Below, in pieces: positions 59,573-61,848 of a stretch of 64,000 bases of DNA. The DNA is taken from the NCBI GenBank assembly GCA_022828125.1, contig JAJEJD010000008.1, positions 124,001 through 188,000 on the forward strand, in the 5' to 3' direction. Origin of the DNA: a bacterium. Its GTDB lineage: Bacteria > UBA8248. A program made the position numbers and the translations under genes. The first letter of the stretch is position 1. Every line of letters starts with the position of its first letter. Under the pieces are notes generated by a model, which saw nothing but the letters and a program-made list of their open reading frames with translations, was not told the origin of the DNA and did no database searches.

Positions 59573-59956
59573 ATGTCGGATGGAACGGTCACGCTGTTCG
59601 ATCAGTCCCAAAAGAAACCCCAAGCCCTTGAAGGCATTACGGTTACGCCGCTCGCCAACCAGAAGGTGGCCGAGATTCTCGAGGCGGAAGGCAAGAGTGG
59701 CCACGGGTTGCGTCTGGCCGTCACCGCAGGCGGCTGCTCGGGTTACAACTACGGCCTCTATTTTGAAGAGAGCGCGAATCCCGAGGATAAAGTGTTCTCC
59801 GCCGAAGGCTTCGACGTGTTCGTGGACCCCCAGAGCTACCCCGTCATCGCCGGAACGGAAATCGATTTCGTCGACAACCTTCAGGGTTCGGGCTTCAAAA
59901 TCAACAATCCCAACGCCATGGGCATGTGCGGCTGCGGAAAATCCTTCACTACGTGA
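59573..59956 (+). CDS. HesB/IscA-family Fe-S cluster insertion protein
   Basis: A 127-residue A-type carrier. The family ligands are in order: GLRLAVTAGGCSGYNYGL (first Cys), then NPNAMGMCGCGKSF (CxC near the C terminus). An ErpA/IscA-like role in delivering 4Fe-4S clusters is likely. An N-terminal extension of about 20 residues precedes the domain. CAAGGAG lies upstream of the ATG. It is divergent from clpB and immediately upstream of the selenocysteine-containing radical SAM gene, an enzyme that needs such clusters. Confidence 0.88.
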   Translation: MSDGTVTLFDQSQKKPQALEGITVTPLANQKVAEILEAEGKSGHGLRLAVTAGGCSGYNYGLYFEESANPEDKVFSAEGFDVFVDPQSYPVIAGTEIDFVDNLQGSGFKINNPNAMGMCGCGKSFTT

Positions 59957-59974: not shown

Positions 59975-60007
59975 GCCCCGGGCATCACGCGCCCGGGGCT
60001 TTTTTTG
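59975..60007 (+). terminator. Rho-independent terminator after the HesB gene
   Basis: 9-bp stem GCCCCGGGC / GCCCGGGGC with a 7-nt loop, then TTTTTTT. It lies 19 bp after the HesB stop and 20 bp before the radical SAM start, so the two genes may be only partly co-transcribed. Confidence 0.8.
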
Positions 60008-60026: not shown

Positions 60027-61481
60027 GTGAACCCTAACGATAAGGCTTCGGAGTGGCGAGCGCCCGGCGCCGTCGTCCTCGTCTCGTGTTATGAGCTGGG
60101 GCACCAGCCTCTGGCCGTCGCCTCCCCTCTGGCTTTCTTGCGCGAAGCGGGCTTCCGTCCCTGGGCGATGGACGTTGCGGCGGAGGATTTCTCGCCCGAA
60201 AAAATCGCAAAGGCGAAATTCGTCGGCATCAGCGTGCCGATGCACACGGCGCTCAGACTCGGCGTGGAAGTTGCGGCGAAAATACGCGAGACAAACCCGG
60301 CGTGCCACATCTGCTTCTATGGCCTCTACGGCCTGCTCAACAAGGGCTATCTGCTTGAAAACGGCGGGGATTCGGCCATCGGCGGCGAGTTCGAACTGCC
60401 GCTCGTGAAACTCGTTCAAGGTCTGTCGCAATCCTCGGAGAAACTCGACGTTCCCGGCGCGGCCACGAGAGAGCACACATCCGGTCCGTATCTCGAAAAA
60501 ATCCCCCTGCTCAAGCCCGACCGGGAAGGATTGCCCGCGATTCAGGCATACGCCCATCTCGTAAGAGACGGGGTACACTATCCTGCGGGAGCCGTCGAGG
60601 CGAGCCGAGGCTGCAAGCACTTGTGCCTCCATTGCCCCATTCCGCCGGTCTACGAGGGCCGTTTCTTCGTCGTGCCACAGGATAAAGTTCTGGAAGACAT
60701 CGAAGACCTGGCGGCGCAAGGCGCGCGCCACATCACCTTTGCGGACCCGGATTTCCTGAACGGCCCTGCTCATGCGCTTCGGGTCGCCCGCGCCATGCAC
60801 GAGCGGTTTCCGGCTCTCACCTTCGACTTCACGGCCAAGGTCGAGCACCTCATCAAGCACGAGGAGCTTCTGCCGGAGTTCAAAGAATACGGATGCGCGT
60901 TTATCATTACCGCGGTGGAATCTTTAAGCGACCTCGTCCTTGGTCATCTGGTGAAAGGACATAACAGGGAGGACGTCTTTCGCCTGGTGAAAGCCGCCCG
61001 GCAGGCGCGTGTCTCCATCCGGCCGTCTCTGGTCGCATTCACGCCGTGGACGAGCGCGCAGGATTATTTCGATCTGCTTGATTTCATTGAAGAATACGCC
61101 TTGATCGACGAGGTCGACCCCATACAGATGGCCATCCGGCTTCTGGTGCCGCCGGGTTCCCATTTACTCGACTCCCCTCACATGAAGAGATACATCACCG
61201 AACTCGACGCCGAGAATTTCATCTACCGCTGGGAACATCCGGATGAGAGAATGGACAAGCTGCACCAGGAGGCGCTCACCCTCGTGGAGGATGCTGCCAC
61301 TCGCCAGGAGGACGCCGCCGTAACTTTTGCGAGGATTCGCGAATTGGCGGCCGATATTCTCGAACACCCCGGTCAGGCGCAGCCAAAAGCCGCCTTCGCG
61401 CCCGATCGAATCCGCCCGCCTCGCCTGACCGAATCGTGGTTCTGCTGAGCGGAGCCCACCCAGGGCCAGTTGGCCCTCTGA
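60027..61481 (+). CDS. B12-binding-like radical SAM selenoprotein, CUAEP tail (UGA at 61446 = Sec)
   Basis: A 484-residue protein when the TGA at 61446-61448 is read as selenocysteine. Residues about 1-135 form a Rossmann-like cobalamin-binding-type domain (VVLVSCYELGHQPLAV, IGGEFELPLVKLV). The radical SAM cluster is SRGCKHLCLHCP (C196, C200, C203). The frame continues past TGA as W-F-C-U-A-E-P-T-Q-G-Q-L-A-L to a TGA at 61479. A family of radical SAM proteins ending CUAEP or CCAEP is known to me by name; here U follows Cys473. A 6-bp stem with an AGTT loop (61462-61477) places a G in the second loop position about 20 nt after UGA, within the known bacterial SECIS range. Standard gene calling would stop at 61448. 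Confidence 0.88.
61446..61477 (+). other. Selenocysteine UGA and SECIS-like hairpin (radical SAM gene)
   Basis: TGA at 61446-61448, then a perfect 6-bp stem AGGGCC / GGCCCT (61462-61467, 61472-61477) with tetraloop AGTT. G is at loop position two, and the loop starts 20 nt after the UGA. These features meet the published bacterial SECIS rules (stem, G in the first two loop positions, 16-37 nt distance). Confidence 0.75.
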
Positions 61482-61497
61482 GACATCAAGAGAAGAT

Positions 61498-61848
61498 TTA
61501 CGTCAAAACCTTTGTATATGTTTCCTCGTCGAAACCGACGATGAGGGCGTTTCTATGCTTGATGACCGGCGCTCTGAGCGTGCCCGAGCGGCCCATCAAT
61601 AGTGCCAGCACGTCTTCGCGCGCAGGGCTCTCTTTTTCGATATTCAGGTGAATCACCTTCCTGCTCCTGGTCGAATAGACGTCCGTCACCCCATCCAGAA
61701 CCGAATCGACGTTGCTCTCATCCACCACGTCTTTTCTGGAACTGGCCTGCTCGGATACCTCGATTCCATTTTCCGCAAGAAACGCTTGCGTTTTGGTGCA
61801 GGTCTTTCAGCCGGAGCGATGGTAATACCAATCCACTGCCTTCGACAT
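61498..61848 (-). CDS. ArsC-family selenoprotein (UGA at 61809-61807 = Sec14)
   Basis: A 116-residue thioredoxin-fold protein of the ArsC/Spx-like type. Starting at ATG 61848 the frame reads MSKAVDWYYHRSG-U-KTCTKTQAFLAENGIE, so the in-frame TGA falls at the first cysteine of the CxxC redox motif (U14-K-T-C17). It continues through LMGRSGTLRAPVIKHRNALI and VGFDEETYTKVLT, family-typical of ArsC-like (seleno)proteins. GAGGAG lies 10 nt upstream of the ATG. A 6-bp hairpin CGCAAG-CGTTT-CTTGCG starts 17 nt after UGA, loop at 23 nt with G second. Without recoding only the C-terminal 76 residues would be called, from a GTG at 61728. It is convergent with the radical SAM selenoprotein, 16 bp apart. 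Confidence 0.88.
61774..61809 (-). other. Selenocysteine UGA and SECIS-like hairpin (ArsC-like gene)
   Basis: TGA at 61809-61807, then a perfect 6-bp stem CGCAAG / CTTGCG (61790-61785 and 61779-61774) with a CGTTT loop. G is second in the loop and the loop begins 23 nt after the UGA, within the bacterial SECIS range. Confidence 0.75.

What the first reader, a model, noticed from the sequence alone, without database searches (positions are those of the whole stretch)
60027..61481. Radical SAM selenoprotein hidden by a UGA misread as stop
Seen: the radical SAM frame continues past TGA 61446 as C-U-A-E-P-TQGQLAL to a second TGA, and a hairpin of SECIS geometry (6-bp stem, AGTT loop with G in position two, loop 20 nt after UGA) follows. 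Known: radical SAM proteins with a C-terminal CUAEP or CCAEP tail form a recognised (seleno)protein family, and bacterial Sec insertion uses such a hairpin. Inference: TGA encodes selenocysteine and the enzyme has a Cys-Sec redox tail. What it modifies is unknown.
Basis: partly seen in the sequence, partly recalled or inferred. Interest (0 to 1): 0.93.

Follow-up and report, generated by a model that had tools for sequence, protein, structure and literature searches.

The report
Selenocysteine-tailed radical SAM enzyme, confirmed
A radical enzyme gene whose apparent stop codon really encodes the rare amino acid selenocysteine near the protein's end; it belongs to a family already catalogued but uncharacterised, and it travels with an amino-acid ligase that suggests what pathway it serves.

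Summary
The radical SAM frame (60027-61481, +) runs through TGA 61446-61448 into AEPTQGQLAL and then a second TGA. The genome has selA, selB, selC and selD. In all 80 named relatives that column is TGA (51) or a Cys codon (29), and the C-[U/C]-x-E-P tail is conserved. The downstream hairpin covaries on both sides, is present in every Sec form tested and weak or absent in nearly all Cys forms. Outside the window's family, Sec-form genes occur with selB (14/14) and Cys forms lack it (0/2). The protein passes NCBIfam NF040546 'CUAEP/CCAEP-tail radical SAM (seleno)protein', so it is a new member of a catalogued family, not a new kind. New here: (i) the family is tied to one ATP-grasp amino-acid ligase (16/16 genomes versus 6/352) and to Fe-S carriers; (ii) in four genomes that ligase has its own in-frame TGA at its otherwise invariant Cys; (iii) the nearest relative is the arsinothricin enzyme ArsL, whose tail also has a Cys pair and whose clusters also hold an ATP-grasp; (iv) a second selenoprotein gene (ArsC family, UxxC) lies tail-to-tail at 61498-61848 (-). 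The chemistry is inferred, not shown.

The parts
60027..61481 (+). Radical SAM selenoprotein gene (CUAEP-tail family), 484 residues, GTG start, ends at TGA 61479-61481
   Evidence: Frame; NF040546 664.5 bits against cutoff 500; AlphaFold2 model mean pLDDT 93.5
61446..61448 (+). UGA codon read as selenocysteine (residue 474)
   Evidence: TGA or Cys codon in 80 of 80 named relatives; Sec machinery in the genome
61462..61477 (+). Bacterial SECIS hairpin, stem AGGGCC/GGCCCT, loop AGTT
   Evidence: Two-sided covariation and Sec-versus-Cys contrast
60612..60635 (+). Radical SAM cluster motif C196-x3-C200-x2-C203
   Evidence: Invariant in 50 aligned relatives; Pfam Radical_SAM
59573..59956 (+). A-type iron-sulfur carrier (IscA/ErpA/SufA family), directly upstream in the window's family
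   Evidence: TIGR00049 120.9 bits, cutoff 58.8; conserved upstream neighbour in relatives L055-L062
61498..61848 (-). Second selenoprotein gene, tail to tail: ArsC-family (seleno)protein with SGUKTC (UxxC) motif, TGA at 61807-61809
   Evidence: NF041106 118.5 bits, cutoff 85; same TGA in same-genus loci L011/L151 and L015/L150

Best explanation
Shown by comparison: the gene encodes a radical SAM selenoprotein of the CUAEP/CCAEP-tail family. UGA 61446 is decoded as selenocysteine through an in-gene bacterial SECIS hairpin and the genome's own SelA/B/C/D, giving a protein whose C-terminal tail carries a vicinal Cys473-Sec474 pair. Shown by co-occurrence: the enzyme works in one pathway with an ATP-grasp/LAL_C2 amino-acid ligase and with iron-sulfur carriers. 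Inferred (about 40% on its own): like ArsL, its nearest characterised relative, it splits SAM to a 3-amino-3-carboxypropyl radical; the Cys-Sec tail holds a thiophilic substrate such as As(III) or another soft element in the active site, a new amino acid is formed on that element, and the ATP-grasp enzyme, which carries its own invariant Cys (Sec in some species) beside its conserved E-x-x-x-R-x-x-G-G loop, ligates it into a small peptide. The confidence given is for the first two sentences; the chemistry is rated 0.4.
For: Identity. Sec machinery; selB present in 14/14 Sec-form genomes and 0/2 Cys-form genomes outside the window's family. Pathway: 16/16 genomes with the rSAM have the ATP-grasp versus 6/352 without (p = 2e-23); the genes sit side by side in several phyla; the window's own genome has the ligase next to an Nfu gene. 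Fe-S carriers of unrelated families (A-type, Nfu) and SUF genes recur next to it. Chemistry: ArsL family NF040542 is the next best model at 312 bits; ArsL-family proteins align over the whole fold and end in RCCLKC, their CC aligned with C473-U474; two ArsL-family (RCCLKC-tail) plasmid clusters hold an ATP-grasp gene a few genes upstream, homologous to the CUAEP-linked ligase at 21-28% identity. ArsL transfers 3-amino-3-carboxypropyl to As(III) (PMC8552651).
Against: No arsenic genes (arsM, arsR, arsB) were seen among the recurrent neighbours of the CUAEP family; the only arsenic-like neighbour, the ArsC-family selenoprotein, was found only in the window's genus, and ArsC relatives are often not arsenate reductases. 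ArsL is only about 33-35% identical and the window protein falls under the NF040542 cutoff. The ArsL-linked ATP-grasp lacks the invariant Cys and is a distant homologue. The repeated Fe-S carriers are not explained by an ArsL-like reaction. No biochemical evidence for this family was found.
Confidence: 0.85

Rival explanations
1. Sulfur or selenium insertion: the enzyme consumes a second iron-sulfur cluster held by the Cys-Sec tail, as lipoyl synthase does, and the neighbouring Nfu and A-type carriers reload it; the ligase then uses the product.
For: Nfu- and A-type carriers and SUF genes recur next to the rSAM in distinct phyla, an unusual bias; Nfu proteins support lipoyl synthase turnover (PMC9585516, title and abstract only).
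Against: Beyond the CxxxCxxC motif and the C-U pair no Cys is fully invariant (C21, C96 and C290 are only nearly invariant), so a second [4Fe-4S] site is not obvious; the closest relative ArsL is thought to have a single cluster (PMC8552651).
Confidence: 0.25
2. Redox tail: Cys-Sec forms a selenenylsulfide that passes electrons or protects the enzyme.
For: Adjacent Cys-Sec pairs can be redox active (general knowledge); many Sec sites in the review tables are thiol-redox motifs (PMC13188914).
Against: The pair is adjacent, not CxxC/CxxU; ArsL-family proteins also end in a Cys pair, and there the substrate is a thiol-loving element.
Confidence: 0.3
3. TGA 61446 is a true stop and the enzyme ends at WFC.
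For: Standard gene calling stops there; the hairpin is not more stable than shuffles by itself.
Against: Tail conserved across many phyla, Cys/Sec exchange about six times on the tree with at least two forced by supported branches, covarying SECIS, full Sec machinery, perfect match of selB to codon type outside the family.
Confidence: 0.02

Closest known systems
NF040546 CUAEP/CCAEP-tail radical SAM (seleno)protein (NCBIfam)
   Same: Whole-length match, same tail with Sec or Cys; RefSeq already uses the name (Thermomicrobium roseum plasmid)
   Different: Nothing essential; this is a member, from an uncultured lineage close to MAGs named Nitrospinota and Tectomicrobia. The family carries no assigned function or partner
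ArsL, arsinothricin biosynthesis radical SAM protein (NF040542, RCCLKC tail)
   Same: Homologous over the whole N-terminal and rSAM domains (33-35% identity), Cys pair at the C terminus, ATP-grasp gene in two plasmid clusters
   Different: No Sec, shorter C-terminal region without WFCUAEP, arsenic genes as neighbours; the window protein scores 312, under the cutoff 450
TIGR04167 rSAM_SeCys and NF045646 TrsS, other radical SAM selenoproteins
   Same: Radical SAM plus Sec
   Different: Listed in the 2026 review with other or no motifs; neither model is hit by this protein
B12-type radical SAM fold (AprD4 6fd2, TsrM 6wte, MgmA 9ccb)
   Same: Overall fold, TM about 0.6
   Different: 20% identity or less; cobalamin binding not tested here

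Membership tests
NF040546 CUAEP/CCAEP-tail radical SAM (seleno)protein | Score above curated cutoff over the model length | tested here: met
   664.5 bits versus 500, model 1-467 of 468
NF040546 CUAEP/CCAEP-tail radical SAM (seleno)protein | C-terminal C-[U/C]-A-E-P tail | tested here: met
   WFCUAEP in the window; tail found in 80 of 80 relatives, with CUTEP and CUSEP in two
NF040546 CUAEP/CCAEP-tail radical SAM (seleno)protein | CxxxCxxC cluster motif | tested here: met
   C196, C200, C203 invariant
Bacterial selenoprotein | selA, selB, selC, selD in the genome | tested here: met
   All over cutoff; selA and selB adjacent on contig C30
Bacterial selenoprotein | SECIS hairpin right after the UGA | tested here: met
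   Covariation in 38 distinct sequences; absent or weak in nearly all Cys forms, a few (e.g. Thermogemmatispora) keeping a remnant
Bacterial selenoprotein | Sec present in the protein | not testable with these tools
   Needs mass spectrometry or 75Se labelling
ArsL (NF040542) | Score above curated cutoff | tested here: not met
   311.9 versus 450
ArsL (NF040542) | RCCLKC tail | tested here: not met
   Tail is FCUAEP; only the CC/CU pair aligns
ArsL (NF040542) | 3-amino-3-carboxypropyl transfer to As(III) | not testable with these tools
   Enzyme assay needed

The most novel reading that the evidence does not exclude
The CUAEP enzyme and its ATP-grasp partner form an undescribed biosynthetic pathway, spread over about ten bacterial phyla, in which both enzymes use a Cys or Sec to hold the same thiophilic (probably metalloid) intermediate, the first building an amino acid on it from SAM and the second ligating it. 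The Sec form of the ligase would be a new selenoprotein family.
Probability: 0.35. Interest if true: 0.85.

Novelty: new member of a known kind. Interest (0 to 1): 0.5.

Why it matters
Tying it to one ligase, to Fe-S carriers and to the ArsL fold turns 'unknown substrate' into a short list of tests. The in-frame TGA at the ligase's invariant Cys suggests that selenium is used twice in one pathway, which points at the substrate rather than at generic redox.

Tried and rejected
Rfam scan of the region: no SECIS or other convincing match. Single-sequence folding: uninformative, z = 0.01. A DUF169 gene is a frequent neighbour in Nitrospira and Planctomycetes but has no clear orthologue in the window's genome (25% identity over part), so it was not made part of the core pathway. 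Literature: no paper held contains CUAEP; CCAEP gave unrelated papers; no paper joins selenoprotein, ATP-grasp and SECIS or arsinothricin and ATP-grasp; the two papers by Haft and colleagues that a 2026 review cites are not held, so a mention there cannot be excluded. Coordinates of the AlphaFold model are not exposed, so the position of the tail relative to the SAM site could not be measured (pLDDT of residues 471-484 is 66-73). The stem score of the putative SECIS in the Sec-form ligase does not stand out from Cys forms, so that claim rests on the codon column and silent-site conservation.

Full report
Observation. The frame starting at GTG 60027 runs for 473 codons to TGA 61446-61448 and continues as AEPTQGQLAL to TGA 61479. 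Its folding energy alone is not better than shuffled sequence, so the observation needed comparative support.

Selenocysteine. The window lies in a 3.9 Mb draft genome (G000, 97% complete) that holds tRNA-Sec (75.9 bits, cutoff 47), selB (384.5, cutoff 242), selD (334.9, cutoff 125, itself with one in-frame TGA) and selA (575.9, cutoff 268). A scan of 84,980 species genomes gave 80 loci: the column is TGA in 51 and TGC/TGT in 29; the motif C-[U/C]-A-E-P is complete in 78, with CUTEP and CUSEP in the other two. Among 49 Sec loci the hairpin is always found; among 29 Cys loci it is mostly gone, a few keeping remnants. In 38 distinct Sec sequences the five inner pairs form in every case with changes on both sides (alignment). 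On a 52-protein tree Sec and Cys exchange about six times by parsimony, at least two of them forced by well-supported branches. In a sample of 386 genomes, outside the window's own family all 14 Sec-form genomes have selB and both Cys-form genomes lack it.

Identity. NCBIfam model NF040546, 'CUAEP/CCAEP-tail radical SAM (seleno)protein', matches at 664.5 bits with cutoff 500. The family is catalogued and used in RefSeq, as in Thermomicrobium roseum. A May 2026 review of the prokaryotic selenoproteome contains neither CUAEP nor any model number beginning NF0405 (PMC13188914), and no held paper contains CUAEP. It is therefore known by name, with no function that I could find.

Pathway partners. 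Neighbour analysis over 80 loci with domain annotation shows: an A-type Fe-S carrier upstream in the window's lineage (59573-59956 here); Nfu-type carriers directly downstream in Rokubacteria and others; SUF genes in Ignavibacteriota and a few others; a DUF169 gene in Nitrospira and Planctomycetes; and an ATP-grasp ligase with a LAL_C2 domain directly or nearly adjacent in several phyla. The window's genome has that ligase elsewhere (53% identity, C19:299743-300972), beside an Nfu gene. Outside the window's family 16 of 16 genomes with the rSAM have the ligase, against 6 of 352 without (Fisher p = 2e-23). Phylogeny was not corrected for, but the genomes outside the window's family are mostly one or two per family.

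A second Sec enzyme in the pathway. In four genomes (G112, G250, G379, G386) a copy of this ligase has an in-frame TGA at codon 293 of the aligned region, exactly at the Cys of R-[SAP]-I-G-G-x-C, which is Cys in every other orthologue where the motif was read. In G112, G250 and G379 it lies about 40-90 nt downstream of the matched part of the Sec-form rSAM. A hairpin GGGAC-CGGGAT-GTCCC begins 18 nt after the UGA and is nucleotide-identical in all four although only 20% of comparable codons in the gene are (45 of 224); codons 298-304 are the longest run of identical codons in the gene. The stem score alone does not stand out from Cys forms, so the evidence is the codon column and the silent-site conservation. 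No selenoprotein ATP-grasp model appears in the NCBIfam hits, and the word grasp does not occur in the review. This is a candidate new selenoprotein family.

Mechanism. The nearest other model is ArsL (NF040542, 312 bits). ArsL moves the 3-amino-3-carboxypropyl group of SAM to As(III) (PMC8552651; a 2024 JACS paper on the same enzyme is cited in PMC12159101). ArsL-family proteins align across the whole fold and end in RCCLKC, with the Cys pair in the C473-U474 columns (the long gap before it makes that register approximate); two plasmid clusters contain an ATP-grasp gene upstream, a distant homologue of the one found here. I therefore favour a substrate-holding Cys-Sec tail and ArsL-like radical chemistry on a thiophilic element, followed by ligation. 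This step is inference at about 40%. Against it stand the missing arsenic genes and the unexplained Fe-S carriers, which favour a lipoyl-synthase-like, cluster-consuming reaction as the chief rival on chemistry. The AlphaFold2 model is confident (pLDDT 93.5) and resembles B12-type radical SAM enzymes, but the tail is the least certain part.

Verdict. The finding is correct and well judged. It is a new member of a known, uncharacterised family; the added value is the link to a ligase, the second candidate Sec enzyme, and the neighbouring ArsC-family selenoprotein in the same window.

Noticed in passing
window 61498-61848 (-), TGA 61807-61809: Second selenoprotein gene, convergent with the first: ArsC family (seleno)protein NF041106 with SGUKTC motif and a 6-bp hairpin CGCAAG-CGTTT-CTTGCG after the UGA; same TGA in two same-genus relatives. 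Not in the ORF list because of the TGA.
   Followed up: partly
L173 5518-6738, L174 5503-6723, L175 5452-6669, L193: ATP-grasp/LAL_C2 ligase with in-frame TGA at its otherwise invariant Cys, next to the CUAEP rSAM in three of the four genomes: candidate new selenoprotein family.
   Followed up: partly
window 59975-60006: Strong terminator-like hairpin (9 G-C pairs, then seven T) between the A-type carrier and the rSAM start, leaving about 20 nt before the GTG; the rSAM would need read-through or a very close promoter. A similar hairpin is visible in same-genus loci L010, L012, L015 (by eye).
   Followed up: no
G000:C30:4116-5078 (L047): The genome's selD itself carries one in-frame TGA, so SelD is probably also a selenoprotein here.
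   Followed up: no
L207 2629-3852, L208 1430-2662: ArsL-family (RCCLKC-tail) plasmid clusters of Priestia and Alicyclobacillus contain an ATP-grasp and a carboxymuconolactone-decarboxylase-family gene upstream; no held paper mentions both arsinothricin and ATP-grasp.
   Followed up: partly
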